Origin: Peterkaempfera griseoplana
Lineage (GTDB): Bacteria; Actinomycetota; Actinomycetes; Streptomycetales; Streptomycetaceae
DNA length: 64,000 bases
Direction: 5' to 3'
NCBI RefSeq assembly: GCF_001418575.1
Contig: NZ_LIQR01000054.1
Location: 1-64,000, forward strand
Shown here: piece after piece, positions 1,342 through 18,401 of the stretch
How the letters are laid out: every line of letters starts with the position of its first letter
How positions within the stretch are numbered: the stretch's first letter is position 1
The notes under the pieces: model-generated
What the model saw: the letters and a program-made list of their open reading frames with translations, nothing else
Databases searched by the model: none
What the model was told of the DNA's origin: nothing
Position numbers and translations under genes: made by a program

Positions 1342-1408
1342 CAGGGACTCCTTTCGATCGGTAGGGGGTGCTGGGGTGGAGGTCTGCCGCCCAGCGGGCG
1401 GCTGGGTG

Positions 1409-1791: not shown

Positions 1792-1874
1792 GGGTGCTGC
1801 TCCTCTCGGTTTCGGGCATGGGGCGGGTAGGGACCTGGCGCGAGGCGGTCACGCCGACCGGGGTGTGGTGGAGG

Positions 1875-3254: not shown

Positions 3255-3260
3255 GGCGGA

Positions 3261-3611
3261 TCAGCCCTTGACCGGGGTCGGCAGCTGAGCCGGGACCAGG
3301 GCGACCGCGCGGAACGAGATGCCGTGCCGCTTCTGCCCGTTGAACTCGTTCTCCCAGTCCCGCGCCTTCAGCCCGACCACCGAAACCGGCATGCCGACCT
3401 GCAGACCGTCCGGGACGCCAGTCGCGGGGATGGACACGGTGTAGAGGTTGGCCTCGCCCTCGTCGGCCACGGTCAGGCCGACCGTCATCATCTGCGCGCC
3501 GGTCTCGCGGTCGAGGGCGATCTCGCCCGTCTGCTTGTTGACCACCTTGGGCGCGGCCGGTACGGCCACGAACACGATTGCGGTGGAAGTGTCGATCTTG
3601 AAGGACGGCAT
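3261..3611 (-). CDS. SCO3933-family regulatory protein
   Basis: 116 aa, beginning MPSFKIDTSTAIVFVAVP and containing VVNKQTGEIALDRETG. This pattern marks the SCO3933 family found between the GntR gene and the FtsK-like gene in many streptomycete elements. It is all-beta in appearance, with no enzyme motif. It is the first gene of the leftward operon, directly after the operator region at 3632-3751, and is probably repressed by the GntR protein. The biochemical role is not established. Confidence 0.75.
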   Translation of the reverse strand: MPSFKIDTSTAIVFVAVPAAPKVVNKQTGEIALDRETGAQMMTVGLTVADEGEANLYTVSIPATGVPDGLQVGMPVSVVGLKARDWENEFNGQKRHGISFRAVALVPAQLPTPVKG

Positions 3612-3631
3612 GACTGCTCTCCTGTCGACTT

Positions 3632-3656
3632 ACTTGGAGTGCTTAGTACTCCAAGT
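3632..3656. promoter_or_regulatory. palindromic operator 1 (ACTTGGAGT/ACTCCAAGT)
   Basis: Nine-base arms ACTTGGAGT and ACTCCAAGT around a 7-base centre, 20 bp upstream of the SCO3933-family start. The ACTTG/CAAGT half-sites recur in two further palindromes to the right. This is the expected layout of KorSA-type GntR operators controlling the transfer operon. Confidence 0.6.
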
Positions 3657-3673
3657 GGCGATGATTTGAGGAT

Positions 3674-3702
3674 GCACTTGGTATGCCAAGAGTGTCAAGT
3701 GC
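3674..3702. promoter_or_regulatory. palindromic operator 2 (GCACTTG/CAAGTGC)
   Basis: Outer arms GCACTTG and CAAGTGC enclose a smaller palindrome CTTGGTATGCCAAG. It shares its half-site with operators 1 and 3 in the divergent promoter region between the transfer operon and the GntR gene. Confidence 0.6.
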
Positions 3703-3733
3703 TGCTGCTCGACTGTGTCCCCGGCTTGTGCTG

Positions 3734-3751
3734 CACTTGGTACGTCAAGTG
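3734..3751. promoter_or_regulatory. palindromic operator 3 (CACTTGGTACGTCAAGTG)
   Basis: Arms CACTTG and CAAGTG around GTACGT, ending 11 bp before the GntR start codon. A repressor bound here would block its own gene, so the GntR protein is probably autoregulated. Confidence 0.6.
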
Positions 3752-3762
3752 GGAGAGGGGTC

Positions 3763-4128
3763 ATGGCGGAGCACAGCGGCAAGGCGATGTACTTGCAGAT
3801 CGCCGACGAGATCAAGCGGCAGATCCGGGCCGGCGAGCGGAACCCGGGGGACCTGCTGCCGTCCGAAGCGGAGATCATCCGGGACCACAACGTCTCCAGG
3901 ACCGTTGCACGCCAGGCGATGAACCGGCTCGTGGAAGACGGCTATGCCACCTCGCACCAGGGCAAAGGCCGGTTCGCGGCCCAGCCGACGGGCGAGCCGG
4001 CGAAGCACACCCCCGAGTACGAGCTGATCACCGCGAGTCTGGCCGCGATGCATCAGGATGTTCGGCAGCTGGGGGAGCGTCTGGACCAGCTCGAAGAGCT
4101 CGTACGTCACCAGTTGCGAGCGCAGTGA
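3763..4128 (+). CDS. GntR-family transcriptional regulator (KorSA-like)
   Basis: 121 aa. The N-terminal ~75 residues form a GntR winged helix: YLQIADEIKRQIRAGE, then PSEAEIIRDHNVSRTVARQA and the wing GKGRF. A short helical C-terminus (LGERLDQLEELV) probably makes the dimer, and there is no ligand-binding domain. I use the ATG at 3763, where the GntR pattern begins, rather than an in-frame start at 3715 inside the operators. It is divergent from the transfer operon and next to three ACTTG/CAAGT palindromes, the arrangement of KorSA in pSAM2, which represses transfer functions. Confidence 0.85.
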   Translation: MAEHSGKAMYLQIADEIKRQIRAGERNPGDLLPSEAEIIRDHNVSRTVARQAMNRLVEDGYATSHQGKGRFAAQPTGEPAKHTPEYELITASLAAMHQDVRQLGERLDQLEELVRHQLRAQ

Positions 4129-4222
4129 CGATCCGCTCCGTCCGCTGCGACAGTTGAACCAGCTCGTCCCCTAAGTCCCTGATCAGCTCTGCGATCTGGT
4201 CCTGTTCAGCCGGAGTCAGCAC
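4028..4222 (-). CDS. possible small helical protein, antisense to the GntR 3' end
   Basis: 64 aa starting MLTPAEQDQIAELIRDLG, amphipathic and coiled-coil-like. The GTG start at 4222 has GGGGAG about six bases upstream. The last ~100 bp overlap the 3' end of the GntR gene on the other strand, where that protein is also helical, so part of the reading may be an antisense shadow. The first ~30 codons lie outside the GntR gene and look protein-like. Confidence 0.4.
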   Translation of the reverse strand: MLTPAEQDQIAELIRDLGDELVQLSQRTERIVTALATGDVRALRAGPDAPPAAEHPDASRPDSR

Positions 4223-4355
4223 CGCGACTCCCCTCCCGTACCGCTCGTGGGTCTGACGTACATCCGAGGTTGACCTCAACGCTAGAAGCCACCGCCGCCA
4301 GGACCCCGGAATCTTTTTCCGGGGTCCCCGTGTACAGGGGAGCGACGCTGAAGCC

Positions 4356-5578
4356 ATGCGAGGAATGACGACGAACCTCACCATCGGCGAACGAGTGGCC
4401 TGGTACCGGCGGCGGCGCGGCATGTCTCAGGACGTGCTCGCCGGACTGGTCGGCCGAACAACGGACTGGCTCAGCCGGGCCGAGAACAACCGCATCGAGC
4501 TGGACCGCCTGTCGGTCATCAAGAGCCTGGCCGACGCCTTGGACGTGACCATGGGAGACCTGCTCGCCGAGCCCTCCCTCATGGAGTGGACCCCCGACAG
4601 CGGCCGGCGCACCGTCCCCGCCCTGCGCGAAGCCCTGATGAACTACCGCCAACTGACGCCGCTGCTCGGAGTCCCCACCGAAGGCGAGCCCACCAGCCTT
4701 GCCGAACTCCGCAGCGATGTCGCCGACGTCTGGGACGCCTACCAGTCATCGCGGTACGGCTACGCCACCCGACGGCTCCCGCTGATCCTCGCGGATGCCA
4801 TCCTGGCCGCCCAGTCCTACACCGGCAGTGACGGTGCCAGGCCCATGAGCTGCTGGCCATGAGCTACCAGGGCGCCGCCATGGTGCTGACCAAGCTCGGC
4901 GAGACCGACTTGGCCTGGATCGCCGCCGACCGCGGACTGTCCGCAGCCCAGCAGGGCCGAAGCCCGATCGTCGTCGGCTCCCTGTTCCGGTCCGTCGCGC
5001 ACTGCCTGCTCTCCAACGGCCGCTATGACTCAGCCGTGCAGCTCGTCCAGGACGCCGCCGGCTACCTGCGGCCCGGACTGCGCGGCGCATCCCCCGAGTA
5101 CCTGTCGATCTTCGGGACACTTCTGCTCGCCGGATCCATGGCCACCGCCCGAGCCGAGGACCGTGCCACCACCCGAGACTTCCTCACCGAAGCCGACCAA
5201 GCCGCCGAGCAGATGGGTCACGACGCCAACCACATGTGGACCGCGTTCGGCCCCACCAACGTCGCCATTCACCAGGTGGCCACCGCCGCCGAACTCGGCG
5301 ACATGCAGGTCGCCATCGAACTCGGCCCTCAGATCGACACCACCGGCCTGCCCACCGAACGGCGCGCCCGTCACAACCTCGAAGTAGCCCGCGCCATGAG
5401 CGCCCGCAACCAGGCCGACAACGCCCTGTCGCTGATCCTCGACGCAGAGACCTGGGCACCCGAGCAGGTCCGGAACCACTACCTCGCCCGCGAACTCGTC
5501 CTTTCATGGGTGCGCAACCAGCGCACTCGCCCCGGCCGCCCTCTCGCTGACCTCGCCCAGCGGCTGCACGTCGTCTGA
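4356..5578 (+). pseudogene. XRE-family regulator with long helical C-terminus, frameshifted at ~4840-4860
   Basis: The first frame (to 4862) has a clear XRE helix-turn-helix (YRRRRGMSQDVLAGLVGRT, then LSRAENNRIELDRL) and the start of an alpha-helical ligand-type domain. It stops at 4860-4862. The -1 frame continues without loss as AHELLAMSYQGAAMVLTKLG to 5578, reading as TPR-like helices. The two halves together make one ~400-aa regulator of the kind common in streptomycetes. The break is at GGTGCCAGGCCC, around 4835-4850. Either the gene is broken, the base call is wrong, or the two halves are separate proteins (an ATG at 4859 exists but has no good ribosome site). It sits 18 bp before the Nudix gene, a frequent pairing. 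Confidence 0.7.
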
Positions 5579-5596
5579 CCTGGGTACTGTGGGCAC

Positions 5597-6082
5597 ATGG
5601 CCACCAACGAGCACGAAGCCAAGATGGCGCACCCGCGGATGGCTGCGGGTGCGCTCTTCTTTGACGCCGCCGGGCACGTCCTCATGGTGGAGCCGACCTA
5701 CAAGGACTACTGGGACATCCCCGGCGGGTACGTGGAGACCGGCGAATCCCCCCTGCAAGCCTGCATCCGCGAGGTACGCGAAGAACTCGACATCACCCCA
5801 CCCATCGGCCGGCTGCTGGCCGTCGACTGGGCACCAAGCGACCGCGAAGGCGACAAGGTGCTCTACCTCTTCGACGGCGGCCAGCTCACACCCGCTGCTC
5901 TTGAAGCCATCACCCTCCAGGCCGACGAGCTCCGCAGCTTCCGGTTCGTGCCCGTCGAGGCCATCCCCAAGCGCACCATTCCCCGCCTGGCCCGCCGCAT
6001 CACCGCCGCAGCCCACGCCCGAGCCGGACAGGCCCCGGTCTACCTCGAACACGGCTACCCAGCCGGTCACGCTGCCGCCTGA
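5597..6082 (+). CDS. Nudix hydrolase, possible Pif-like element immunity protein
   Basis: 161 aa. The Nudix box GX5EX7REUXEEXGU is visible at residues 43-65 (GGYVETGE, then REVREELDI), all acidic metal ligands present. Nudix enzymes hydrolyse nucleoside diphosphate-linked compounds. In pSAM2, the Pif immunity factor that blocks redundant transfer has a Nudix motif, so this gene, next to a pSAM2-like transfer region, may play that part. This is inference from context; a housecleaning hydrolase is equally possible from sequence alone. It starts 18 bp after the XRE reading frame. Confidence 0.8.
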   Translation: MATNEHEAKMAHPRMAAGALFFDAAGHVLMVEPTYKDYWDIPGGYVETGESPLQACIREVREELDITPPIGRLLAVDWAPSDREGDKVLYLFDGGQLTPAALEAITLQADELRSFRFVPVEAIPKRTIPRLARRITAAAHARAGQAPVYLEHGYPAGHAAA

Positions 6083-6084
6083 AC

Positions 6085-6933
6085 TCAGGCCCTCAGCCAG
6101 GGCCGCCGATCCCGCGCGTGACCGTAGACGACCGTTACCCTCCCCGGTGCCAGCACCGCGGGAAGCGCTCCGAACCAGGCGTCAGCCCGGCTCCCGTCGA
6201 TGACCGCCACGACCGGCGAAGTCGAGCCCCCACGGATCGAGCGTGCCCCCACCACAGCCAACACGGGCCGCACCTCCACCGCGAACGGGCATAGCCGCGA
6301 CAGCAGCCGGGTCGCCCTCTCAGCCTCAAACAAGCTGTTCCGCACATAGTGATCGTTTCGGCCGTTCACCGTCACCGCCCGGTCGCCGACCCACACCGAG
6401 GCCCCGCGATGGTGCTTGGTGTTCACCACGAACACCCCGCCGGGACCGATCAACAGGTGGTCGAGGTCCGAGCCATTGGACAGCTCGATCGAGTGCAACG
6501 CCTGCCACCCGGCCGCCTCCAATCTCTTGAGCCGAGAGCCGACGATCCGCTCGCCCTTGAGGCCGACTTCCCACCGGGCCAACTCGTGTTGCCGCTTGCT
6601 GTGTCGAGCCATCCATCGCTTGACCCTGCTTGGCTCCAGGGTCTGGATCTGCCGTCGTAGAGCATCACCGGCCCGGACCGTGGCCAGGTCGTCAGCGGCA
6701 GCCGGAACGATTGGCGCCTCCCACGGCCCCAACTCACCTGCTCGAGAGGTCGATCCGCAGACCAGGTATGGCGCCAACGCCTCCAGCGCTGCATCCCGGT
6801 ACCCGTCGAGCACCGGCACCAGGCGTCCCGCCTTGCCGTCGTACCAAGCGACCGTCACGTCATCGGCCACCCGGTTGACGTACAAGCGATCCTGCCCCCG
6901 TCGGCGCCACGACTTCACTCGCAGCTCGTCCAC
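6085..6933 (-). CDS. NERD-domain protein (nuclease-related)
   Basis: About 282 aa from a GTG at 6933 (a longer reading starts at 7005). The C-terminal half fits the NERD domain: GERIVGSRLKRLEAAGW, then SDLDHLLIGPGGVFVVNTKH and WVGDRAVTVNGR. NERD resembles PD-(D/E)XK nuclease folds, with the D in DLDHLLIG and the K in VNTKH at the expected places. The N-terminal part is a beta-rich region of unknown role (LYVNRVADDVTVAWYDGK). It ends 2 bp from the Nudix stop, so the two genes converge. NERD proteins are frequent on actinomycete mobile elements. Substrate unknown. Confidence 0.8.
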   Translation of the reverse strand: MDELRVKSWRRRGQDRLYVNRVADDVTVAWYDGKAGRLVPVLDGYRDAALEALAPYLVCGSTSRAGELGPWEAPIVPAAADDLATVRAGDALRRQIQTLEPSRVKRWMARHSKRQHELARWEVGLKGERIVGSRLKRLEAAGWQALHSIELSNGSDLDHLLIGPGGVFVVNTKHHRGASVWVGDRAVTVNGRNDHYVRNSLFEAERATRLLSRLCPFAVEVRPVLAVVGARSIRGGSTSPVVAVIDGSRADAWFGALPAVLAPGRVTVVYGHARDRRPWLRA

Positions 6934-7077
6934 GCGACCACCCCCAGCAGCGCTCGACAACGACCCAGGGGAGCACAGCCCCGAGCAGCCGACAAGAGCG
7001 CCCATTCACACCGAACCACCCGAGCGATGCACCAGAAGGGAGGAGAGCGAGAGGGGGAGGAGAGGAGATGCGTAAAA

Positions 7078-7420
7078 ACCTTCTCTACGGGTTCAAGGCG
7101 CGGCGCCTGGCGCCGCGCGGCCCCGCCCGTCCGCTCGCCGTCGCTCCTGTCTTCGCCCCGCTCCGGCGGCGGCCAGCGGGCCCGCAGGCAGGATGACTCA
7201 TAAGGTTAGGACAACCCGCCCGGGCAGGGGCGGCCGGCTCCACGGCTTTACCCACCTGCCCGATCAGGGACCCGAGTCGACCAAGGCCAGGGGGCCACTC
7301 GGCCAGATTGCGGGCAGGCGAGGAGCCTGCCCGATTCGCGGGTCAGCTTACGGCCCCCTGGCCATGCCCGACCCCAGACCGGGCAGGACACCGGCCAAAC
7401 CCGTTCCACCGTCCAGGCGT
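7078..7420 (+). repeat. non-coding repeat, copy 1 (with structured core)
   Basis: The gene-free stretch 7006-7682 is mostly this repeat. It opens with TTCTCTACGGGTTCAAGGC, which recurs at 29323, followed by a GC-rich inverted region, CTCGCCGTCGCTCCTG and a Cys/Pro-poor non-coding tract, then the nested stem-loop described separately at 7275-7400. Copies 1 and 2 align over about 320 bp and copy 3 (30826-30960) only over the structured part. Stops in all frames and the base-pairing pattern argue against coding. Beyond 7420 and up to the methyltransferase I see no further gene. Confidence 0.6.
7275..7400 (+). ncRNA. candidate structured RNA, copy 1
   Basis: An outer helix pairs CAGGGGGCC (7288-7296) with GGCCCCCTG (7352-7360). 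Inside it CGGGCAGGC (7311-7319) pairs with GCCTGCCCG (7325-7333) over a 5-base loop. A small hairpin TGCCCG/CGGGCA (7365-7370 with 7380-7385) follows. The same nested design occurs at 29518-29590 and 30849-30921. Between copies, one base pair of the inner helix changes from G-C to T-A on both strands together, which supports a real RNA (or hairpin DNA) structure. Strand is assigned by analogy only. Confidence 0.5.
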
Positions 7421-7682: not shown

Positions 7683-9011
7683 GTGGTGAGCTACCATCTT
7701 GTGCATGCATGTGTCCCGGACCAGGCTCTCCTCGACGTTCGTGGGGCCGAACTACCGAGCAGCCGCTCTGCCGCAGGACCGGTGAGCGCGCGCGATAGGC
7801 GCTGGACAGTCGTAGATCTGTTCAGCGGAGCCGGAGGGATGAGTTGGGGGTTTCACGCCCACTCGTCGTTTCGTGTCGCAGCGGCGGTCGATGCACAAAG
7901 GAGCAAGCCGAGCCGTAGCACGCTCGCCTGCAACGAAACTTATCAGCGAAATATAGGGGTTGAACCCCTCACTTACGATCTTGCAGATGTGAGTCCGGAG
8001 GAGCTGCAGCAGGCCATCCGGCGAGCAGGACACCTGCGCCGACCGAAGATACTGCTTGCCTGCCCTCCGTGCACTGGATTCACTCGCACCCTGCCGAAGA
8101 ATCATAGTGAGGACGATCCCCGAAACGGGCTTGTAGGGAGGGTTGCGGATTTCGCCGCAATGCTCAATCCCGAGATTATCATCGTTGAGAACGCCCGGGA
8201 GCTTATTCGTGGAGCGTTCCGCACCCACTCGGAAGAGCTCATAGGAAAGCTCGAATCAATGGGCTACACTGCTCATTCTGCGGTCTATCGCCTTGACAAG
8301 TTCGGACTTCCACAGCGACGCGAGCGCGCGATCATTATTGCTGTGGCCGCCGGCCTACCCCTTAAGACGCTGGAAGACCTTTGGTCCGGCTGGAAGGTCG
8401 ATCCAAAGGCAATCACGGTGCGCCGGGCGATCTGGGATCTCCCCGAGCTCGAGGCAGGACAGGCTCATCCCTCGGATTCCTCTCACGTCAGCAGCAGACT
8501 CACCCCGGAAGTGCTTGAGCGCATCCGAGCCATCCCCACGGATGGCGGCTCTTGGATCAGCCTGTTCAGTAGCGCGGAGACGGAGAAACTGGCTACCCCT
8601 GCCATGAGGAGCTCGTTTGATGCTGGGCGGACCAACCACTTCAGCGATGTCTATGGCCGTATGGCGTGGGACTCTCCAGCACCGGTCATTAAACGCGAGT
8701 GCAGCCACGTCGGTAACGGCCGATACAGTCACCCTCAACAGGATCGCTTGTGCACCGTGAGAGAGCTAGCACTCCTCCAAGGATTCCCGGCTAATTACGA
8801 CTTCGATGGGGCAAGCCGGCAGAACGCCTACCGTCATGTGGGCGACGCCGTCCCCCCAATGATTAGCCATCAGCTGGCGTGGGTTTGCCACTGGATACTT
8901 GGGGGAGCACGCCCGAAACCGGAGCAGTTTGTACTTCGGGGCACGACGCTGAGGCCTCAGGACATACTCAGTCATCACGCCACTAAGGTGGAGCAAGGCA
9001 AGGGCTCTTGA
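7683..9011 (+). CDS. DNA (cytosine-5) methyltransferase
   Basis: Up to 442 aa with the ordered C5-methyltransferase motifs: I (VVDLFSGAGG), IV with the catalytic cysteine (PPCTGFTRT, C130 counted from 7683), VI (ENAREL), VIII (LPQRRERAIIIA), IX (RELALLQGFP) and X (GDAVPP). It should transfer methyl from S-adenosylmethionine to C5 of cytosine in a specific DNA site. Motif IV is PPCTG rather than PPCQ, and motif VI is ENA rather than ENV, as in some divergent members. The start is uncertain: GTG at 7683, or GTG at 7782 with AGGA upstream, just before motif I. It is 12 bp upstream of the dual ATPase gene, so the two are probably one operon. GC is lower than in the flanking DNA. Confidence 0.9.
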   Translation: MVSYHLVHACVPDQALLDVRGAELPSSRSAAGPVSARDRRWTVVDLFSGAGGMSWGFHAHSSFRVAAAVDAQRSKPSRSTLACNETYQRNIGVEPLTYDLADVSPEELQQAIRRAGHLRRPKILLACPPCTGFTRTLPKNHSEDDPRNGLVGRVADFAAMLNPEIIIVENARELIRGAFRTHSEELIGKLESMGYTAHSAVYRLDKFGLPQRRERAIIIAVAAGLPLKTLEDLWSGWKVDPKAITVRRAIWDLPELEAGQAHPSDSSHVSSRLTPEVLERIRAIPTDGGSWISLFSSAETEKLATPAMRSSFDAGRTNHFSDVYGRMAWDSPAPVIKRECSHVGNGRYSHPQQDRLCTVRELALLQGFPANYDFDGASRQNAYRHVGDAVPPMISHQLAWVCHWILGGARPKPEQFVLRGTTLRPQDILSHHATKVEQGKGS

Positions 9012-9023
9012 TGTCAAAGTAAA

Positions 9024-12000
9024 GTGGGGAAGCCGGAACTATACGGAGGTCCGACTGCTGTGGCTACATTCAAAGCTCGCGCTCGCGCAGTCGATATGCT
9101 CGGCCGCCAGCAGATCGCGGGTATCCCTACGGCCATCAACGAGCTCTTCAAGAATGCGCACGACGCATACGCGGAGAACGTGATCGGTGATTACTTTCGC
9201 GAGGACAGACTCCTCGTGATCCGCGATGACGGCTTCGGCATGACCTATGGCGACTTCATCGACAAATGGCTGGTTGTTGGAACTGAGAGCAAGGTGAACG
9301 CCGGGGCTGCTCCGCCCGTGGATTCGAAGAGCGCACGTCCTGTCCTTGGCGAAAAAGGGATTGGGCGCCTGGCAGTCGCTGCGGTAGGACCTCAAGTTCT
9401 TGTCCTATCCCGCAATGCCCAAGATGTCGCTCTCACGTTCGCGCTTGTCAATTGGACATTGTTCACTGCTCCGGGCATCGATCTCGAGGACGTTGAGATC
9501 CCGACTCTACGAATCCCAATCGGTGAACTTCCTGGCCAAGAAGAAGTGCGTCATCTTGCGGAGGGTATACTTCGCAACCTGGAGGCACTAGAGGGACGGA
9601 TAACGCCCCAGGTCGCCCAGACCGTTCGGGAAGAAATCTCCGCACTCTACAACCTGGATCCTGCTCATCTCACGCAGCGAATGGCGGGTCCGACTCTTAG
9701 GGAAGTACCGGGAACCCAATTTTGGATTACCCCAACCGATGAGATGTTGGCCTACGACATCTCTGGCAGTCCAAATGATGAAAACGAGGCATCCCCGCTC
9801 TTTAGAACGCTCATCGGATTTAGCGATACGCTAGTGCCGGGGAATCCCGCGCCTCCGATGGCGGCACACTTCTATGATCACCGATCTAAGGACCTGGTCT
9901 ATGATGTGATTGGCGATGGAGAGTTTTTCACTCCGCAAGACTTCCAACTCGCAGATCACCAGATCCTCGGTTATTTTGATGAGTACGGGCAATTCTCCGG
10001 CAAGGTTTCGGTCTACGGCAGGGACCCAGTAAAGCATGTCGTTGCCTGGCCGGGGTCTCGAGGTAAGCCTACGCTTTGCGGCCCCTTCAAACTTAACCTT
10101 GCATACGTGCAAGGAAATAGGAGTCAGTCTCGTTTGGGTGACGAGGACTTCAATCGGCTGGCGCGGAAGCTTGCCCGAGTAGGAGGCCTGTACGTCTACA
10201 GGGACAGAGTTCGCATGCTTCCCTACGGGCGAAGCGACTTTGACTGGCTCGATATCGAGCGAGAACGTAGTAAGAGCGCATCCGACTACTTCTGGTCGTA
10301 CCGCCGCATGTTTGGCGTTGTGGGGATTGATAGTACCGCCAACTTCCGTTTGCAAGAGAAAGCGGGACGGGAGGGATTCCGGGCTAATGCTGCTTATCGC
10401 GAGTTCCGGGACATGCTTCAGAACTTCCTTGTTCAGACGGCAAGAGATTTCTTCCGCGAAGATAGTGCTGACGAATCCTGGCGAATCACTAGGAGGGAAC
10501 TAGAGCGCGAAGCCGATGCCCGGCGTCGGCACGACAAGCAGACCCGTAAACGCAGGGCAGACTTTCGCCAAGAATTGTTGGGGGCAGAGAAAAGGCTCAG
10601 CCAGGGAGTCCCTGAGGAACACGTCGGCAGCATCCTGCGCGACCTCGAGTCTGATCTCGCAGACGCAGTTTCCGACCTGGATTCAGCGCGAGCGGCACAA
10701 AAGGTGATCGCAGCCGAGGCTCGCGCACAACGAGCAGTCAATGAAGTTCGCGTGAGGTTTCGGGTCAGCCGACCTCGTGGCGTGGCTCTTCCGAGGGGCC
10801 TCGCACAGGACTGGGACAATTATCAGCGTGAGTTCGAAGCAATGGAGCGTTCGCTCCTAGAGCACACGCGTACGGAGATTGAGAGGCGCAGTTCTACGGC
10901 AGCCAAACGTCTGGGCTCTGCTCTAGATAGGCGGAGGCGTTTCGAAGCTGGAATTCAGGGCCGTATCTCGGACGCGCAAACTGCCTTGGGGCGGCGATCC
11001 CGCGAGGTTGTCGAGCGTTCAGAAGAGCTGCAGAAGGTGATTGTTCAGCAGGCCAACGAGTGTCGCAGAAAGCTCGAAGAGCAAACTCGACTCGTTCAGC
11101 TCGACATGGCTAGTACGAGCACTGATGAGCTGACTGATCAAGACGCAGCTGATCTCCGCAGGGCGCTGGAAGATCGCATCGATGGCGCCATGACGCAACA
11201 AGTGCAGCAGCTGGATGCTCTGCTAGAACGCATGGATTTGACTTTCGGCGCCCAGCCGGAGAGCTCAGCCGGCGATGTCCTTGACGTCATCGGTAGCTTG
11301 GAACAGGAAGTCGTGACGCTCAAGGACCGCGCAGATGACGATCTCGAGCTGGCGCAGCTCGGGCTGGCGTTGCAGGTCATCAACCATGAATTCTCTTCGA
11401 GCATTCGCTCGGTACGCACTAACCTAAGAAGACTGCGCTCTTGGGCAGATGCGAACAGGGCATTGCGTCCGGTTTACTCGGATCTGCGTGCCAGCTTCGA
11501 GCATCTTGACGCATACCTAAGGCTTTTTACCCCACTGAATAGGCGCCTCTACAGGCGCGACACAATCATGAAGGGGGCTGATGTCGAACGCTTCCTTGTC
11601 GACCTATTTCGAGAGCGAATCTTGCAAGAGAGTATCAGTTTGGAGGCCACCCCCGAGTTCCGAAACGCTAGGGTTAGGGCTTACCCTTCGACGCTTTACC
11701 CGGTTTTCGTCAATTTGGTCGACAATGCCATCTACTGGCTCACGACTCGAAGTGCACCACGCGTAGTTCGATTGCATCACAGCGAGCGGGAGTGGATCGT
11801 CGAGGACAACGGTCCGGGTGTTCCTACGGTTGATCAACCAAGAATATTTGAACTTGGGTTCTCGCGAAAGCCAAACGGCCGAGGGATGGGGCTGCATATC
11901 AGCAGAGACGTGCTCCGGAAGGAAGGATGGTCGTTGTCCCTTTCCACTTCACCGTTGGGGGGCGCGAGGTTCACGCTACAAGAGCCGGACGAAGGCGTGA

Positions 12001-12059
12001 ACGTAGCGGCAGACGATCAGCGCATCGCGGACATGTTGGCACTTGAATTGGATACCTAG
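9024..12059 (+). CDS. dual GHKL ATPase: MutL/MORC-like N-terminus, coiled coil, histidine-kinase-like C-terminus
   Basis: 1011 aa. The N-terminal GHKL ATPase has an N-box INELFKNAHDAY (N44), DDGFGM (68-73) and a lid GEKGIGRLA (109-117), as in MutL, Hsp90 and MORC proteins. A beta-rich region follows, then a long charged coiled coil (about residues 490-760). The C-terminus carries INHEFSSSIRSV with H788 in an H-box-like position, an N-box NLVDNAIYWL (N901), VEDNGPG (D928) and GRGMGLHI, a full histidine-kinase ATPase. So one chain has two ATP-binding sites of different type. No membrane segment is visible, so it is cytoplasmic. With a methyltransferase before it and a receiver-domain protein after it, I infer an intracellular sensor/transducer in a defence module. 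MORC-like ATPases linked to methyltransferases are known; this double architecture I do not recognise as a described system. Confidence 0.85.
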   Translation: MGKPELYGGPTAVATFKARARAVDMLGRQQIAGIPTAINELFKNAHDAYAENVIGDYFREDRLLVIRDDGFGMTYGDFIDKWLVVGTESKVNAGAAPPVDSKSARPVLGEKGIGRLAVAAVGPQVLVLSRNAQDVALTFALVNWTLFTAPGIDLEDVEIPTLRIPIGELPGQEEVRHLAEGILRNLEALEGRITPQVAQTVREEISALYNLDPAHLTQRMAGPTLREVPGTQFWITPTDEMLAYDISGSPNDENEASPLFRTLIGFSDTLVPGNPAPPMAAHFYDHRSKDLVYDVIGDGEFFTPQDFQLADHQILGYFDEYGQFSGKVSVYGRDPVKHVVAWPGSRGKPTLCGPFKLNLAYVQGNRSQSRLGDEDFNRLARKLARVGGLYVYRDRVRMLPYGRSDFDWLDIERERSKSASDYFWSYRRMFGVVGIDSTANFRLQEKAGREGFRANAAYREFRDMLQNFLVQTARDFFREDSADESWRITRRELEREADARRRHDKQTRKRRADFRQELLGAEKRLSQGVPEEHVGSILRDLESDLADAVSDLDSARAAQKVIAAEARAQRAVNEVRVRFRVSRPRGVALPRGLAQDWDNYQREFEAMERSLLEHTRTEIERRSSTAAKRLGSALDRRRRFEAGIQGRISDAQTALGRRSREVVERSEELQKVIVQQANECRRKLEEQTRLVQLDMASTSTDELTDQDAADLRRALEDRIDGAMTQQVQQLDALLERMDLTFGAQPESSAGDVLDVIGSLEQEVVTLKDRADDDLELAQLGLALQVINHEFSSSIRSVRTNLRRLRSWADANRALRPVYSDLRASFEHLDAYLRLFTPLNRRLYRRDTIMKGADVERFLVDLFRERILQESISLEATPEFRNARVRAYPSTLYPVFVNLVDNAIYWLTTRSAPRVVRLHHSEREWIVEDNGPGVPTVDQPRIFELGFSRKPNGRGMGLHISRDVLRKEGWSLSLSTSPLGGARFTLQEPDEGVNVAADDQRIADMLALELDT

Positions 12060-12132
12060 CCTCTCTCTATCCTCCGTCAGCTCAACCACTGCTCTACAAT
12101 CCGACTAGCAGACCATGCATTGACAGGAGAGC

Positions 12133-13842
12133 GTGCAGATGGCAGCAGGTGGGATGTCGTCTTCAGCACACCCCGTGGATTCAGCACGTGATTACGCGGA
12201 TCTGTGTATGCGCGCGGCCCAGGAATTCATTCACACGATCGTTGTTGTGGATGACCGCGCGACCTACGGAGAGCTCGAAGCTATTACATCGCTCGTTGAG
12301 CCCGGAGCAGTGATTGCGGCCGAAGATTCCTTTGATGAGCCAGCTGGTATTGCTCCCGGCGGCGCATCTCTAAACGTTGCAGTACTGACCGACGCAAGCG
12401 CGGACATCGGTCTTACCTGTGCAGTTCTTCGGCCGCGCGAGGAGGAGCAGCGTGATGGCACGCTGCACAGACGACTGGTTCGGGCGGCTCGAAGGGCCGA
12501 TGTCCTTGTGCTGGACTGGCAGCTGAACGACGAATCAGATGGACAGGCGGCGCTTCGGCTGCTGAGCGACGTAGCTCAAGAGGATAAGCGAGGTCAAGGG
12601 CGTCTTCGACTTGTCTGCTTCTACACGAGCCATCCCGATTTGGACGGCGTGTTCGGTGCGGTTGAACGTCACCTCGGCGAAGCGGTTCTAAGTTCTTCTG
12701 GGCCCGGCCAAGCCTATCGCTGGATTGACTGTGGCTGCATGCGAATTGTCGTGTTTGCGAAGGCCGGCGGTATCACCGCAGACATTGCTGTGCCGGCGAT
12801 CGCATTGGAGGAGGACGAGCTACCGCAGAAGTTGGTCGAAGAGTTCGCCTCACTGACCTCGGGCTTGGTGAGTAATGTGGCAGTTGCCTCACTCGCGGCT
12901 GTCAGGGCAGATGCGCACCGATTGTTGACAAGATTTGGTTCGAGTTTGGATGAGCCTTTCCTGTCTCATCGTTTCTATGAAGGTGGCCCGGAAAGCGAGG
13001 AGCTGGTTGTTCGTCTAGTAGCCGACGAGATCAAGTCTCTCCTTGATAGCGCGGACGTGAGGCGGTGGATAGAGCCTACCGCAATAAGGCATTGGGCCCA
13101 GCGGTATCTTCCTGATCAGATCAAGTTGAAGCCCAAGAAGGGTGAGAGAATTCTCTCAAAGGTGGAGCTGGTAAAGGTCCTTGAGGGCGGCGCGTACTAT
13201 GGCTCCGCAGAAGTAACCAACCAAGTCAATACCGGAAATAAGTTCGATCTCGGTAAAGAATACAAGGATTCCGTTACTGAGATTCTGATTAATGAGGGTG
13301 GTGACGCTGAGCGGCTGGACTATGAGTTCGCACGCCTGACATGCCTGGCTCGCAATGACTCCTCCCCATTCCCGGGCGATAGGTCTCCAATCCTCACTGA
13401 AGGATCGATCGTCAGGGGAAGGAATGGGCAGCAGGTGATCTACCTCCTGTGCTCAATGCCGCTATGTGACACCGTGCGAGTGGGGGCGCCGAGAGCCTTT
13501 CCATTTGTGCCGCTTAAGGTTGTCACGTCCGCTGACCGATACAACCTTGTAGCTTTGAGTCCCGAAGGTGGTCAACTGCATCTAGCCTTCGCGCCGAGTA
13601 ATCACTACGATATTGTTCGTCACACTTTCGCAGGGGATCCTGGCGGAGTTGTTCGGTCCCGTAGGAGAAAGGTCCGGGATCGGGAGCAGTTTGTTTTCTT
13701 TGATGTTGATGAAAAGCCTTGGATATGGGTGGCTGAGCTTCGTTTCCAGCATGCGCATCGGAAGTTGAATGAACTTGGGGCAGCTTCCAGCCGAGTCGGA
13801 CTTGATGAAGCGCACATCCTTCGAAACGCTGGTCGGCGCTGA
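12133..13842 (+). CDS. receiver-domain protein with large C-terminal domain of unknown function
   Basis: 569 aa. The N-terminal ~220 residues read as an enlarged response-regulator receiver: acidic pair D40/D41 (VVVDDRA), phospho-acceptor D128 (VLVLDWQL), switch T165 (CFYTSHP) and conserved K210 (VVFAKAG). All four functional positions are kept, so it could accept phosphate from the upstream kinase-like protein. The remaining ~350 residues have no DNA-binding domain that I recognise and are mixed alpha/beta, with KPKKGERILSK near residue 335. The GTG at 12133 follows AGGAGAGC; the ATG at 12139 is an alternative. It lies 73 bp after the ATPase and converges with the HNH gene 3 bp downstream. 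Likely the response partner of the ATPase; its output is unknown. Confidence 0.75.
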   Translation: MQMAAGGMSSSAHPVDSARDYADLCMRAAQEFIHTIVVVDDRATYGELEAITSLVEPGAVIAAEDSFDEPAGIAPGGASLNVAVLTDASADIGLTCAVLRPREEEQRDGTLHRRLVRAARRADVLVLDWQLNDESDGQAALRLLSDVAQEDKRGQGRLRLVCFYTSHPDLDGVFGAVERHLGEAVLSSSGPGQAYRWIDCGCMRIVVFAKAGGITADIAVPAIALEEDELPQKLVEEFASLTSGLVSNVAVASLAAVRADAHRLLTRFGSSLDEPFLSHRFYEGGPESEELVVRLVADEIKSLLDSADVRRWIEPTAIRHWAQRYLPDQIKLKPKKGERILSKVELVKVLEGGAYYGSAEVTNQVNTGNKFDLGKEYKDSVTEILINEGGDAERLDYEFARLTCLARNDSSPFPGDRSPILTEGSIVRGRNGQQVIYLLCSMPLCDTVRVGAPRAFPFVPLKVVTSADRYNLVALSPEGGQLHLAFAPSNHYDIVRHTFAGDPGGVVRSRRRKVRDREQFVFFDVDEKPWIWVAELRFQHAHRKLNELGAASSRVGLDEAHILRNAGRR

Positions 13843-13845
13843 TCG

Positions 13846-14839
13846 TCAATCGCTCTGGGTTGCGCTCTGAATCGCCGCTCGAAGCTCCAGTGGCGTAGGC
13901 CAGGGAGCGCGCCGATGAATCATGCGGTGACAGTTAGAACAGATGAGAGCGAGGTCTGCCAGCTTAGTGGCGCCCTCGCCAGCCACGTGGAGGGGGACGA
14001 TGTGGTGGCACTCGATGTAGCCAACGCCGCGTTCCCCGTACGCCTGCTCGAAGTTGAAGTTGCAGACCTCACAGGCCAGGCTGAGCCCCTTTCGAAGCAC
14101 AGCCTCGATCTTCTTGTGTCGCAGCCCCCGATTGCGCTCGCGAGCGACGTGCCGGCTTAGGAGCAAGCGACCTTCTGGAGCTTCGTAGTCGTCCAGTTCT
14201 TCGTCCGAGAGTAGAGTCTGCCAGGGAGTCGTCAGCTATTCCAGCCCGTATGAGCTGGGCTGCCGCTGCCATATCCAAGGGCCTTTCGATGAATGCCTGG
14301 ATCACCTTGAGGTCGGTGGCTCCGCAGTTAGTGGATTTTCCCTGATAGTCGGGATGGTTCGACATGAGATCGTAGGTCTTGCGCTCAACACCATTCGGGT
14401 TGCGGAACTTCTCGTTGCGTGATTCGGGTTCGTGGAAGGGGAGCAGCTGCAGCAGAGCCGAGAGTTCAACTGCTCGCGGGTCTTCGGCAGCGATGCCCTT
14501 CCAATCGTTCTCGACAGTGACGGCGCAAGCAAGCACCACTTCGTCCCATGTCCAAGCCGGGTTCCGCACGGATATGACCCGGAAGCCCATACGTTCCAGC
14601 CATGCGACAGCTGCCGCCTTGCCACCGTACAGCTGGTCGTGTGTCAGAGCCTCCCCGTACTCGTACTTGTGCGCAACTCCGGCGATCGCCTTGGAGTCGT
14701 ATCGCAGCCCATCGTGCACCAGCACGTAGCCCAGAGATCGGCCATAGTGGTAGGTCTTCCGGAACTCCTCTGGACCCAGTCGGTCGTACTCCTCGATCGC
14801 CGCCAATACCGCCTCACGGCTAAAGATCCCCTTCTTCAT
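13846..14839 (-). pseudogene. McrA-like HNH endonuclease, frameshifted near 14200-14238
   Basis: The N-terminal frame (14839 down to about 14235) matches the head region of ScoMcrA-like proteins: FSREAVLAAIEEYDRLG, LVHDGLRYDSKAIAGVAH, then RNPNGV. The other frame picks up as LLSDEELDDYEAPEGRLL and runs into an HNH domain: CEVCNFNFEQAYG, GYIECHHIVPLH, LALICSNCHRMIH. Catalytic histidines and zinc-type cysteines are complete, so only one indel separates two sound halves of a ~330-aa enzyme. Relatives are type IV restriction enzymes that cut modified DNA. It points towards the methyltransferase operon and ends 3 bp from it. If the indel is a sequence error, this is the nuclease of the module; otherwise the HNH half (106 aa from 14166) may survive alone. 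Confidence 0.75.
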
Positions 14840-15161: not shown

Positions 15162-15353
15162 TTGAACCCGAACCCCACCTGTTGCTTCTGCTACGAGGTC
15201 ATCGATCTTGACCAGGACGGGGCAGCGACCGAGCTCAGGCTCGGTGCTGTTAACCCGGCGCGAGGCGATAGCGTGCGGCAGAAGGCCTACTCACACTCAA
15301 GCTGTCTGCGCGAGCGAGTCCACTCGAACATCGAGCTCTGGTGGGAGTTCTGA
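15162..15353 (+). CDS. small protein with CxxC and HxxC zinc-type motif
   Basis: 63 codons from a TTG at 15162 with GAGAGGG upstream. CCFCYEVIDLD near the start and AYSHSSCLRERVH near the end give a CxxC...HxxC set, which would make a small zinc ribbon. Short proteins with this pattern and an H-x-x-C-L-R ending are common in streptomycetes, function unknown. It lies inside the IS5-like element ahead of the transposase, so it is either a passenger or a captured gene end. Confidence 0.5.
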   Translation: MNPNPTCCFCYEVIDLDQDGAATELRLGAVNPARGDSVRQKAYSHSSCLRERVHSNIELWWEF

Positions 15354-15411
15354 GACGGAGCTGACCTTCACGGCTGCCGATCACGGGTGCGGTGATCTCG
15401 GAGTGCCTGGT

Positions 15412-16170
15412 GTGATCACGGCGTCGGAGCCGTCCTGGATAGCCCCGTTCACCGGGCTGAGCCCGCGCGACTTCCGCAAGCTGATGACGGCCCTCCGCCA
15501 CGAAGGCGCCGACACCGTGCGGCCCGGCCGGCCGTGGAGCCTTCCCTTCGAAGACCGGGTTCTGCTGGTAGCGGCTTACTGGCGCACCAACCTGACACTG
15601 CGGCAGCTCGCTCCGCTGTTCGGCGTGTCCAAGTCAGCGGCCGACCGAATCATCGACCACATCGGCCCGCTGCTCGCACTCAAGCCCCGCAGGCGGTTCC
15701 GCAAGGACACCGTGCTGATCGTCGACGGCACCCTGGTGCCCACACGCGACCACAGCATCGCCGAGCAGTCCAAGAACTACCGGTACTCGACCAACCACCA
15801 GGTCGTCATCGATGCCGACACCCGGCTGGTCGTGGCTATCGGACGCCCGGTGCCCGGCCACCGGCACGACAGCAAAGCGTGGGAGGAGTCCGGGGCCAAG
15901 GCCGCGGTCGGCAGGATCACCACGATCGCTGACGGCGGCTACCTGGGCACGGGCCTGATCATCCCGCACCGCCGCCCGCCCGGTGGCGAACTCGTTCAGT
16001 GGAAGCAGGAACACAACCACTCCCACAAGCAGGTCCGCGCCCGTGTCGAGCATGTCTTCGCCCGCATGAAGACTTGGAAGATTCTGCGTGACTGTCGGCT
16101 CCAGGGCGATGGCGTCCACCACGCCATGCTCGGCATCGCCCGCCTGCACAACCTCCTGCAGGCCGCGTAA
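15412..16170 (+). CDS. IS5-family transposase (DDE)
   Basis: 252 aa from a GTG at 15412, the point where the family begins (VITASEPSWIAPFTGLS). Order: helix-turn-helix LTLRQLAPLFGVSKSAAD, then the DDE core with LIVDGTLVPT (D1), TTIADGGYLG (D2), and RARVEHVFARMK (E). The set of catalytic residues is complete, so the enzyme may be active. Confidence 0.88.
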   Translation: MITASEPSWIAPFTGLSPRDFRKLMTALRHEGADTVRPGRPWSLPFEDRVLLVAAYWRTNLTLRQLAPLFGVSKSAADRIIDHIGPLLALKPRRRFRKDTVLIVDGTLVPTRDHSIAEQSKNYRYSTNHQVVIDADTRLVVAIGRPVPGHRHDSKAWEESGAKAAVGRITTIADGGYLGTGLIIPHRRPPGGELVQWKQEHNHSHKQVRARVEHVFARMKTWKILRDCRLQGDGVHHAMLGIARLHNLLQAA

Positions 16171-16239: not shown

Positions 16240-16489
16240 CTACTGCTCGGGCCCAAGTCGGATTCGAGCCGGGTGCGTGGTGTCTCGAGCTTGAGCGGTC
16301 CCTGTTCCTCAAGCTGGGCGACCAGTTCGCCAACGTGGGCGACCATATGGTCGGACGTCGCACTTCCGGGCAATGGAGCGGCCGGCCGGAAGCTTCTCCC
16401 CTTTGTGCTCGGGCTGGCGGTTGTTCTGACAAGTCGCGCCCGTCGCGTGCCTGGGCGGGCGGCACTGAGCAGCGGAGCCTCCCCCTGAG
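16240..16489 (-). other. 250-bp spacer between the two insertion sequences, possible gene end
   Basis: The minus strand reads HMVAHVGELVAQLEEQGPL followed by LETPRTRLESDLG and a stop near 16224, which looks like the C-terminus of a protein whose 5' part was cut off by the IS3-like insertion at 16490. Nothing upstream restores the gene, so this is only a possible remnant. Confidence 0.3.
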
Positions 16490-16545
16490 TGGTGGACACG
16501 CTGATACTGGATCTGCTTGATCCGGAGGAAGCGAGAACACCGCCG

Positions 16546-16901
16546 ATGGCGATGAAGGACTACTCGGACGAGTTCAAGGCCGATGCGGTGGCCCTGTTCG
16601 AGTCCACACCCGGGGCGACCTACAAGAGCATCGCCGCTGACCTGGGTATCAACAGGAACACCTTGCGGACCTGGGTGCTGCGGGACCGCGAACGCCGGGG
16701 GACCGGCCCGGACGCTGCCCGGGCCGGCAAGACGGCAACCCTCGGACCACGCCGACTGCACCGTCTGAGGATCCGGATGAGCGGATCCGGCAGCTGGAGG
16801 CGCGGGTCGCCGAGCTCGAGGCGAGTGAGCGGAAGCTGGCCACCGAGCGGGACATACTCCGCAAGGCGGCCAAGTATTTCGCCGGGGAGACGAACTGGTG
16901 A
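16546..16901 (+). pseudogene. IS3-family transposase OrfA, frameshifted
   Basis: The first frame gives the helix-turn-helix part (MAMKDYSDEFKADAVALFE, then KSIAADLGINRNTLRTWV). Around 16740-16765 the reading must shift to reach SEDPDERIRQLEARVAELE and ERDILRKAAKYFAGE, the leucine-zipper C-terminus expected of OrfA, which ends at the TGA overlapping the OrfB start (GTGA). So the protein has one internal frameshift near GGACCACGCCG. IS3 elements normally shift between orfA and orfB, not inside orfA, so the copy is probably disabled or misread. Confidence 0.7.
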
Positions 16902-17794
16902 GGAGCCGCTTCCAGTTCGTCGACGACCACCGGGACGCCTTCGAGGTGAAGCGGCTCTGCGAGGTCTTGGACCTGAACAGGTCCAGCTACTACAAGTGGC
17001 TGGCCGGCCGCGAGGCCAGAGCAGCCCGGCAGCGGGCCGACCGGCGTCTGGCAGCCGTGATCCGACAGGTCCACGCGGAATCCGGCGGCGCCTACGGCTC
17101 CCCGCGGGTGACCGCCGAGCTCAAGGAGGCGGGCCTGCTCGTCAATGAGAAGCGGGTCGCCCGGGTCATGCAGGCGTTCTCCATCACTGGCGTCCGCCTG
17201 CGCAGACGCGTGCGCACCACCGTCCCGGACCAGGCGGTCGCCCGGGTTCCGGACCTGTTCGAGCGGGACTTCACTGCCGCCGAGCCAGGGCGGAAATACA
17301 TGGGTGACATCACCTACCTGCCCCTCGCCGGCGGCGAGTTCCTCTATCTCGCGACGGTGCTGGACTGCTTCAGCCGCAAGGTCGTTGGCTGGTCCATCGC
17401 CGACCACATGCGCACCGACCTGGTCGCCGACGCCCTGCGGATGGCCGCCCGCACCCGCGGCGGCCTGGACGACTCCGTCTTCCACTCCGACCACGGGGCC
17501 CAATACGGGTCCAGGGCCTTCGCCGAGCTCTGCGACCAGCTGAAGGTCACCCGGTCGATGGGCGCCGTCGGCAGCAGCGCGGACAACGCGGCCTGCGAAA
17601 GCTTCCACGCTTCCCTCAAGCGCGAGACCCTCCAAGCAGCCCGCGACTACGGTGACCCCGCCACCTGCAGGAACCGGGTCTTCGCCTGGCTGACCCGCTA
17701 CAATACCCGCCGCCGGCACTCCGCCAACGGCCACCTCAGCCCCAACGAATACGAACGGCGACACCACGTCGCTAAACTCACGCTCGCCGCGTGA
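16898..17794 (+). CDS. IS3-family transposase OrfB (rve integrase core)
   Basis: 298 aa. It has an HTH_21-type region (SGGAYGSPRVTAELKE) followed by the DDE catalytic core: YMGDITYLPL (D), SVFHSDHGAQYGS (D) and NAACESFHASLKRE (E). It starts with the GTG that overlaps the OrfA stop. The catalytic core is intact. Confidence 0.88.
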   Translation: MRSRFQFVDDHRDAFEVKRLCEVLDLNRSSYYKWLAGREARAARQRADRRLAAVIRQVHAESGGAYGSPRVTAELKEAGLLVNEKRVARVMQAFSITGVRLRRRVRTTVPDQAVARVPDLFERDFTAAEPGRKYMGDITYLPLAGGEFLYLATVLDCFSRKVVGWSIADHMRTDLVADALRMAARTRGGLDDSVFHSDHGAQYGSRAFAELCDQLKVTRSMGAVGSSADNAACESFHASLKRETLQAARDYGDPATCRNRVFAWLTRYNTRRRHSANGHLSPNEYERRHHVAKLTLAA

Positions 17795-18008: not shown

Positions 18009-18052
18009 CTTACAAAGCAGGGGTCGGCGGTTCGAAACCGTCTGCGCCCACC
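18009..18052 (+). repeat. attachment-site-like tRNA 3'-half repeat, copy 1
   Basis: 44 bp from CTTACAAAGCAG to CGCCCACC. It folds as the 3' half of a tRNA: anticodon loop CTTACAA (anticodon TAC), T-arm GGCGG-TTCGAAA-CCGTC, acceptor strand TGCGCCC and a CC end. The matching 5' half is absent. Tyrosine integrases of actinomycete islands use exactly such tRNA 3' ends as the att core. The right side carries the shared arm (to 18350) but the left side does not, the form expected of an element's left junction. Upstream, 17880-17925 holds a doubled GTGCCACA motif. Confidence 0.65.
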
Positions 18053-18350
18053 CCTCTGACCAGGCAAAACATCAAAAATGAGGGCTTTCGGCAGCACGTC
18101 GGGGCCCTTTTTGGGGTCTCATGGGAACGAATGGGAACGCGATGTCGGCCGTATGGTGCGTTCCGGCGTGAACGGCGTGCTTCTGCGCGACGGCGCCCTG
18201 ACCCGGTGAGGAACAAGGGCCAGGGATAGCGGTCCGAGTCGGTGAGGCTCGCTGGGGACGGCATCCTGACTGGCCCGGAGCCGGCGGATCGCGGCCGTCG
18301 CGCACGGCATGGCGTGCGACGAAGCAACCGGGAGTGACGGCGCACCGGAG
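18053..18350 (+). repeat. right-arm repeat, copy A (pairs with 27840-28140)
   Basis: About 300 bp nearly identical to 27840-28140, directly after the att core. It contains ATGGGAACGAATGGGAACGC at 18121-18140 (two GGGAACG boxes, likely integrase arm-type sites) and a GGGC/GCCC hairpin with a T-run before it. I see no gene in it. Confidence 0.65.
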
Positions 18351-18401
18351 CGCCAACGCCCGCTCGGACTTCGAGGCCCTGCCTGGCGGTACTGTGCGCC
18401 C

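What the first reader, a model, noticed from the sequence alone, without database searches (positions are those of the whole stretch)
7683..14839. Candidate defence module: C5 methyltransferase + dual GHKL ATPase + receiver protein + McrA-like HNH
Three same-strand genes and one convergent gene, packed with gaps of 12, 73 and 3 bp, combine a modification enzyme with a MORC/MutL-like ATPase, histidine-kinase-like parts, a full receiver domain and an HNH nuclease. Methyltransferases beside MORC-like ATPases are known from comparative work on restriction systems, and phosphorelay-based defence (Detocs) is known. I know no described system that joins all these parts. A working model: the ATPase senses unmodified or invading DNA, phosphorylates the receiver protein, and the HNH enzyme or the receiver's C-terminus acts.
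Basis: partly seen in the sequence, partly recalled or inferred. Interest (0 to 1): 0.82.

Follow-up and report, generated by a model that had tools for sequence, protein, structure and literature searches.

The report
Methylase plus DNA-linked two-component module
Three neighbouring genes form a widespread but functionally untested bacterial (and archaeal) unit, first described computationally in 2021, that pairs a DNA-marking enzyme with a soluble sensor kinase and its partner protein, probably to recognise foreign DNA; the fourth gene in the claim is a broken, normally solitary nuclease that happens to lie next door.

Summary
The three-gene core is real: C5-cytosine methyltransferase (7683-9011), a 1011-aa protein with HATPase_c_3 + HEF_HK + HATPase_c (9024-12059), and a Response_reg_2 protein (12133-13842). 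The catalytic and phosphorelay residues checked are intact; the region is low-GC mobile DNA. The combination is already described: Bellieny-Rabelo et al. 2021 (PMC8011034) defined both Pfam families and their linkage to C5 methylases, Vsr and HNH genes. In 81 kinase loci across bacteria and archaeal MAGs, the receiver is adjacent in 80 and the methylase directly upstream in 72; the three genes co-diverge. The fourth gene fails: the HNH "gene" is split by a frameshift (about 14204-14215), intact homologues are common in the host's family without the other three genes nearby (none in 17 regions examined), and its type adjoins only 1 of 81 triads. No nuclease is constant; Vsr is the commonest neighbour (32 loci). 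New detail: the receiver's C-terminal output domain, found only with the triad in 396 genomes sampled, carries invariant C-x4-C and R and is predicted as a MazF-like barrel (structure only; no sequence support; MazF active site apparently absent). Best model: methylation-gated phosphorelay defence or addiction module; untested.

The parts
7683..9011 (+). C5-cytosine DNA methyltransferase (442 aa). Catalytic Cys130 (PPC) and Glu169 (EN) intact; variant motifs PPCT / ENARE / GDAVP where the triad family has PCQ / ENVPG / GNAVP, shared with the Streptomyces griseus copy, so a subfamily trait and not decay
   Evidence: PF00145 5.5e-42; PADLOC MTase_II 3.7e-69; motif comparison with triad methylases; dN/dS 0.05 against the S. 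griseus copy, dS near saturation
9024..12059 (+). paraMORC-like histidine kinase (1011 aa): N-terminal GHKL ATPase, transducer-like region, coiled coil, HEF_HK dimerisation/phosphoacceptor domain, C-terminal GHKL kinase domain
   Evidence: PF13589 + PF19191 + PF02518; 52-sequence alignment with invariant ATP-binding motifs and H788-E789;
9129..9431 (+). HATPase_c_3 (MORC/MutL-like GHKL) domain, residues 36-136; N44, D68-x-G70-x-G72, G109..G114 invariant
11355..11555 (+). HEF_HK domain, residues 778-844; invariant His788 (bases 11385-11387), predicted phosphoacceptor
   Evidence: PF19191 1.1e-27; invariant
11688..11981 (+). C-terminal HATPase_c kinase domain, residues 889-986; N897/N901, G930, G952-G956 conserved
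   Evidence: PF02518 4.1e-16
12133..13842 (+). Response_reg_2 receiver-effector protein (569 aa)
   Evidence: PF19192 6.6e-29; AlphaFold2 model mean pLDDT 86.9
12226..12681 (+). Receiver domain, residues 32-183; D40/D41, Asp128 (bases 12514-12516, invariant in 75 proteins), T165; K210 just beyond
13390..13788 (+). C-terminal output domain, residues about 420-552: beta barrel of MazF-like predicted topology; invariant G424, C440, C445, R449
   Evidence: fold; invariant residues; found only with the triad in 396 genomes
13846..14839 (-). Frame-disrupted McrA-like HNH gene (N-part 14839 down to about 14204; HNH part about 14211 down to 13846). Neighbour, judged NOT a working part of the module

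Best explanation
A three-gene mobile module (methylase, paraMORC-type histidine kinase, receiver-effector) that tells self from foreign DNA by cytosine methylation and signals by phosphotransfer. Proposed working: the methylase marks the host's sites (inferred). The kinase, a soluble dimer whose N-terminal MORC/MutL-like ATPase acts as a DNA clamp or sensor (inferred from the family), is activated by unmethylated DNA (inferred); its C-terminal kinase domain phosphorylates His788, which passes the phosphate to Asp128 of the receiver protein (inferred; all required residues are present and invariant). This releases the receiver protein's own C-terminal output domain, a predicted MazF-like beta barrel with invariant Cys/Cys/Arg, which stops growth or invading replication (inferred, weakest step). 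An element that loses the methylase would be attacked, so the module can also act as an addiction device. Here it sits beside integrative-element genes. Optional neighbours (Vsr, HNH, AAA ATPases) modify it but are not required. Shown here: gene content, intact motifs, conservation of the unit, purifying selection on the methylase. Not shown: any activity.
For: Domain content. Unit conserved: receiver adjacent 80/81, methylase directly upstream 72/81, median intergenic gaps 0 and -4 bp. Co-divergence: Spearman MT-HK 0.57, HK-RR 0.55, MT-RR 0.36, each above all 500 permutations. Invariant His788 and Asp128, two intact ATP sites. Output domain found only in triad genomes, 3/396, so a dedicated effector or adaptor rather than a borrowed DNA-binding domain. 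Many loci end at the receiver with no co-directional gene close behind it or with household genes (PheS, glycosyl hydrolase), so no neighbouring nuclease is obligatory. Mobile settings: a second copy beside FtsK/Tra-type genes in S. griseus, an E. coli island at a tRNA-Leu gene next to type I R-M genes, an E. coli island with SPI-7-type genes, four complete triads plus one contig-edge partial on viral contigs, low G+C here. Methylase dN/dS 0.05 between window and S. griseus. Published linkage to R-M genes, 91.6% HK-RR linkage (PMC8011034).
Against: No experiment, here or in the papers found, shows defence, methylation, phosphotransfer or toxicity. The MazF-like resemblance is structural only (Foldseek E 0.03-0.1, TM-score about 0.5-0.6 on the target), has no profile support, and the MazF catalytic loop and residues seem absent. 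PADLOC 2.0.0 has no model for the receiver protein. Four loci seemingly not cut by a contig edge have kinase and receiver without a methylase upstream (L047, L057, L063, L093). The kinase-receiver pair could instead regulate something else.
Confidence: 0.5

Rival explanations
1. A regulatory two-component system that controls expression or activity of restriction-modification genes, with no effector of its own (the speculation of the 2021 paper).
For: HK/RR architecture; R-M genes enriched around it (PMC8011034); Vsr within four genes in 32 loci.
Against: No recognised DNA-binding domain in the receiver protein (no significant solved relative); the output fold is MazF-like rather than helix-turn-helix; no constant restriction gene to control.
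Confidence: 0.2
2. A type II restriction-modification system in which the ATPase-receiver complex, alone or with a recruited nuclease (HNH, Vsr or another), cleaves unmethylated DNA.
For: C5 methylase; the N-terminal GHKL domain is similar to that of BbrUII/HgiDII-family restriction enzymes (NF050001, 2.5e-16 over residues 22-136) and to a PADLOC REase_II model (6e-5); HNH genes adjacent in 6/81 loci and convergent in E. coli NN5.
Against: No nuclease domain recognised in the ATPase or receiver; no nuclease constant across loci; the local HNH is frame-disrupted and its homologues are found without the triad.
Confidence: 0.2
3. The four-gene defence module of the first reader, with the HNH protein as the executioner.
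For: Physical adjacency (3 bp); one other locus (L066, Solirubrobacteraceae MAG) has an HNH of the same type directly downstream, in frame.
Against: Frameshift between recognition part and HNH; convergent; 45 of 200 family genomes match the query, and none of 17 examined regions of up to 18 kb has methylase, kinase or receiver; the closest triad (S. griseus, 74% identical kinase) has no HNH after it.
Confidence: 0.04
4. Primarily a selfish addiction device of the integrative element, with phage defence incidental.
For: Carried in mobile settings in several hosts; R-M-like logic.
Against: Cannot be separated from defence by sequence; conserved on chromosomes in many phyla.
Confidence: 0.06

Closest known systems
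HEF_HK / Response_reg_2 two-component-like elements (Bellieny-Rabelo, Pretorius and Moleleki 2021, PMC8011034)
   Same: Identical domain families, the predominant architecture HATPase_c_3+HEF_HK+HATPase_c (174 of 222 proteins), adjacency of kinase and receiver, C5 methylase upstream, Vsr and HNH neighbours
   Different: Reported for bacteria only (their search was restricted to Bacteria); no output domain recognised there. Added here: archaeal MAG occurrences, co-divergence, the MazF-like output fold, and that no nuclease is constant
paraMORC ATPases in restriction-modification operons (Iyer, Abhiman and Aravind 2008, PMC2292703)
   Same: N-terminal GHKL ATPase beside cytosine methylases, Vsr and HNH genes; paraMORC1 has an unexplained C-terminal extension and may co-occur with HNH genes
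   Different: That paper does not mention a receiver partner; no SFII helicase recognised here; whether this family is paraMORC1 could not be checked
Detocs (phosphorelay anti-phage system; from my own knowledge)
   Same: Works-like: histidine kinase to receiver to toxic output
   Different: Detocs has no DNA methylase and a separate third effector gene; no sequence match found to the receiver or kinase
ScoMcrA-type HNH enzymes (the neighbouring gene only)
   Same: N-terminal about 90 residues match the start of a type IV enzyme model and it ends in HNH
   Different: No SRA or sulfur-binding domain recognised; about 330-370 aa in intact homologues; disrupted here

Membership tests
HEF_HK/Response_reg_2 R-M-associated module (PMC8011034) | Kinase with HATPase_c_3 + HEF_HK + HATPase_c | tested here: met
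   all three above the Pfam cut-off
HEF_HK/Response_reg_2 R-M-associated module (PMC8011034) | Adjacent Response_reg_2 protein with phosphoacceptor Asp | tested here: met
   PF19192 101.8 bits against a cut-off of 27; Asp128 invariant
HEF_HK/Response_reg_2 R-M-associated module (PMC8011034) | C5 methylase upstream | tested here: met
   PF00145, gap 12 bp; 72/81 loci
HEF_HK/Response_reg_2 R-M-associated module (PMC8011034) | His-to-Asp phosphotransfer between the two proteins | not testable with these tools
   residues present only; also untested in the paper
Type II restriction-modification system | Methyltransferase of a type II family | tested here: met
   catalytic Cys and Glu present
Type II restriction-modification system | Cognate endonuclease encoded with it | tested here: inconclusive
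   only a frame-disrupted HNH nearby; no nuclease constant in 81 loci; GHKL domain resembles that of BbrUII/HgiDII enzymes
MORC/paraMORC ATPases | N-terminal GHKL ATPase with intact motifs | tested here: met
   PF13589; invariant motifs
MORC/paraMORC ATPases | S5 domain after the GHKL domain | not tested
Detocs | Kinase and receiver related to DtcA/DtcB | tested here: inconclusive
   no such hit in PADLOC 2.0.0; whether that release holds Detocs models was not verified
Detocs | Separate third effector gene | tested here: not met
   no constant third gene after the receiver in 81 loci
MazF/PemK toxins (output domain) | Sequence-profile similarity to MazF | tested here: not met
   no PF02452 hit; hhalign probability 0.2 against 25 PemK-family proteins
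MazF/PemK toxins (output domain) | MazF-like barrel fold | tested here: inconclusive
   the top 35 PDB matches of the isolated domain are MazF structures, probability mostly 0.8-0.99, but E 0.03-0.4 and TM-score 0.34-0.59 on the target
MazF/PemK toxins (output domain) | Catalytic Arg/Thr and the long loop between strands 1 and 2 | tested here: inconclusive
   strands 425-431 and 434-440 are joined by a two-residue turn, which leaves no room for the loop; MazF residues recalled from own knowledge; no structural superposition possible
ScoMcrA-type type IV enzymes (HNH neighbour) | SRA or sulfur-binding domain plus HNH in one frame | tested here: not met
   no Pfam hit in the N-part, HNH in another frame; only the first about 90 residues match PDLC03662

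The most novel reading that the evidence does not exclude
A methylation-gated phosphorelay immunity type: unmodified DNA is sensed by a MORC-type clamp fused to a histidine kinase, and the signal ends in a response regulator whose own output domain, a MazF-like barrel with a new Cys/Cys/Arg active site, is the toxin. This would be restriction by signalling rather than by cleavage.
Probability: 0.25. Interest if true: 0.8.

Novelty: new member of a known kind. Interest (0 to 1): 0.42.

Why it matters
The core is a described but functionally blank module. If the phosphorelay model is right, it would join self/non-self marking by DNA methylation (as in R-M and BREX) to signalling-triggered growth arrest (as in Detocs), and give a bacterial system in which a MORC-like ATPase reads DNA methylation, a long-standing question for eukaryotic MORCs. 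The specific, dedicated output domain with invariant residues makes this testable. For this window, the value of the check is mainly corrective: three genes rather than four, and known since 2021.

Tried and rejected
First genome-contig scan with the receiver protein alone found nothing; solved by querying with a kinase alignment. Receiver in phages: no match; in plasmids: two partial matches. MazF homology of the output domain by profile-profile comparison: rejected; only the fold resemblance stands. Viral structure library for the output domain: one weak hit (E 8.6e-4, TM-score 0.17-0.27) of no use. PDB sequence search with the receiver profile: nothing significant. Methylase as degenerate pseudogene, suggested by its odd motifs: rejected, because the S. 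griseus copy shares them and dN/dS is 0.05. HNH as a constant component: rejected. Papers: no functional follow-up of HEF_HK/Response_reg_2 found among open-licence papers; DefensePredictor (PMC13092281) lists an untested predicted system with HATPase and REC domains whose identity I could not check.

Full report
WHAT IS THERE. Pfam names them without ambiguity: a C5 methylase (PF00145); a 1011-residue protein with HATPase_c_3, HEF_HK and HATPase_c; and a Response_reg_2 protein. The stretch has about 57% G+C in a genome of roughly 67%. To its left lie an FtsK/SpoIIIE-type protein (1875-3254, -), a GntR regulator (3715-4128), an HTH_31 protein and a NUDIX protein, typical of an actinomycete integrative element (inference); to its right lie transposase genes at 15208-16170 and 16489-17794.

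THE FOURTH GENE. The convergent 'HNH gene' 13846-14839 is two frames. ORF 14069-14839 carries the N-terminal part and then runs into a nonsense tail; the HNH domain (PF01844, 3.2e-11) is in another frame. An intact homologue matches both frames, 62% and 71% identical, with the switch near 14204-14215. Such homologues, about 330-410 residues and unbroken, are common: 45 of 200 genomes of the host's family match the query (some of these matches cover only the N-terminal 90 residues or the rest). In 17 regions of up to 18 kb around the better matches I found no methylase, kinase or receiver of the kinds considered. The nearest relative of the whole triad, in Streptomyces griseus BIG105 (kinase 74% identical), has a GntR-type gene and no HNH after the receiver. 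The HNH gene is therefore best read as an independent neighbour. HNH genes of other types do lie beside some triads: cluster of five (L028, L048, L076, L079, L087) plus L066, whose HNH is of the window type, and a convergent one in E. coli NN5. The 2021 paper likewise lists HNH_2 as the best represented endonuclease domain near the receiver gene.

CONSERVATION OF THE TRIAD. A scan of 84,980 species genomes with a kinase alignment gave 208 relatives, of which the best 80 were kept; with one more actinobacterial locus, 81 were analysed. The receiver is adjacent in 80, and a C5 methylase lies directly upstream in 72; some exceptions are contig ends, and two others have a methylase convergent downstream (L061, L067). 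Median gaps are 0 bp (methylase-kinase) and -4 bp (kinase-receiver). Hosts span many phyla, including MAGs named as Methanoperedens, Methanosarcina, Methanosarcinaceae and Euryarchaeota (L020, L072, L024, L071; assignment from MAG titles). Because the 80 were picked by similarity to a group-1 kinase, these rates apply to that architecture. Pairwise distances of the three proteins are correlated (0.57, 0.55, 0.36; permutation maxima about 0.2), partly a result of shared ancestry of the hosts, but consistent with inheritance as a unit. In the window's phylum the family is rare: 3 of 396 sampled genomes. In E. coli at least 197 of 5426 genomes have a related kinase; two examples sit in islands, one at a tRNA-Leu gene beside type I R-M genes (receiver broken by an IS element) and one with SPI-7-type genes. 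Four complete triads and one contig-edge partial were found on viral contigs.

NEIGHBOURS ARE OPTIONAL. Vsr-like genes are within four genes of the triad in 32 loci (representative confirmed by PF03852), AAA_15/AAA_21 ATPases in eight, HNH genes in six. At many loci no gene follows the receiver closely on the same strand, and several next genes are household genes. So the minimal unit is three genes, and no nuclease is constant. Vsr is expected beside a C5 methylase because it repairs deaminated 5-methylcytosine.

RESIDUES. Kinase: the ATP-binding motifs of both GHKL domains and His788-Glu789 are invariant or nearly so in 52-78 proteins. Receiver: D40, D128 and K210 invariant, D41 and T165 nearly so. 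Methylase: catalytic Cys and Glu present; the window copy and the S. griseus copy share unusual motifs (PPCT, ENARE, GDAVP), so these are a lineage trait; dN/dS 0.05 with dS near saturation (for the other two genes dS could not be computed).

THE OUTPUT DOMAIN. The receiver protein's model is good (pLDDT 86.9). After the receiver comes a helical region and then a beta-rich C-terminal domain with invariant G424, C440, C445, R449. In 396 genomes this domain was found only in the same three triad genomes. Searched alone, the top 35 PDB matches are all MazF structures, with E-values of 0.03-0.4; in the full-length search MazF structures also dominate the high-probability matches. Profile comparison with 25 PemK-family proteins gives nothing. 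The first two strands are joined by a tight turn, whereas MazF carries part of its catalytic site in a long loop there (own knowledge), and the invariant Cys/Cys/Arg lie elsewhere. I take this as a MazF-like barrel by topology, not a MazF enzyme.

WHAT IS KNOWN. Bellieny-Rabelo et al. 2021 (PMC8011034; [quoted passage not shown] Iyer et al. 2008 (PMC2292703) described paraMORCs with cytosine methylases, Vsr and, for paraMORC1, HNH genes. I found no functional study. PADLOC 2.0.0 has no model for the receiver protein. So the window holds a new member of a described, uncharacterised kind.

MECHANISM AND CONFIDENCE. The favoured model is self-marking by methylation, sensing by the GHKL-kinase protein, phosphotransfer His788 to Asp128, and action by the output domain. 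Only gene content, motifs and conservation are shown; sensing, phosphotransfer and effect are inferred. Confidence 0.5; regulatory TCS 0.2; a cleaving R-M variant 0.2; the original four-gene version 0.04.

Noticed in passing
21008-22981 (+): A 657-aa protein joins an Hsp70 domain (PF00012, 2.9e-53) to a Zc3h12a-like NYN ribonuclease domain (PF11977, 1.9e-5); a chaperone-ATPase fused to a predicted RNase, with a weak match to the PADLOC candidate PDC-M61B.
   Followed up: partly
271-6082: Integrative-element-like genes: DUF2637 protein, FtsK/SpoIIIE-type protein (1875-3254, -), GntR regulator (3715-4128), HTH_31 protein, NUDIX. Similar genes lie beside the S. griseus triad. The contig starts at window base 1, so the rest of the element is not visible.
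   Followed up: partly
6085-7005 (-): NERD (nuclease-related) domain protein, PF08378 1.1e-15, between the element genes and the triad.
   Followed up: no
7276-7399, 29506-29629, 30837-30960: A 124-nt repeat in three copies (75-81% identical), also present upstream of the S. griseus triad; function unknown.
   Followed up: no
18051-18351 and 27839-28139: A 300-bp direct repeat, 94-95% identical, about 9.8 kb apart; possible ends of an inserted segment.
   Followed up: no
L165 11978-14678 (E. coli NN5): Receiver gene interrupted by an IS903B-type element while methylase and kinase genes remain (the methylase also has an ISSen4 near its start).
   Followed up: no
L034 1865-8760 and L039 1821-8785: Two large genes (about 1150 aa each, one starting with a PLD/HKD-like, helicase-like sequence) directly upstream of the triad in two Chloroflexi MAGs; not identified.
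   Followed up: no
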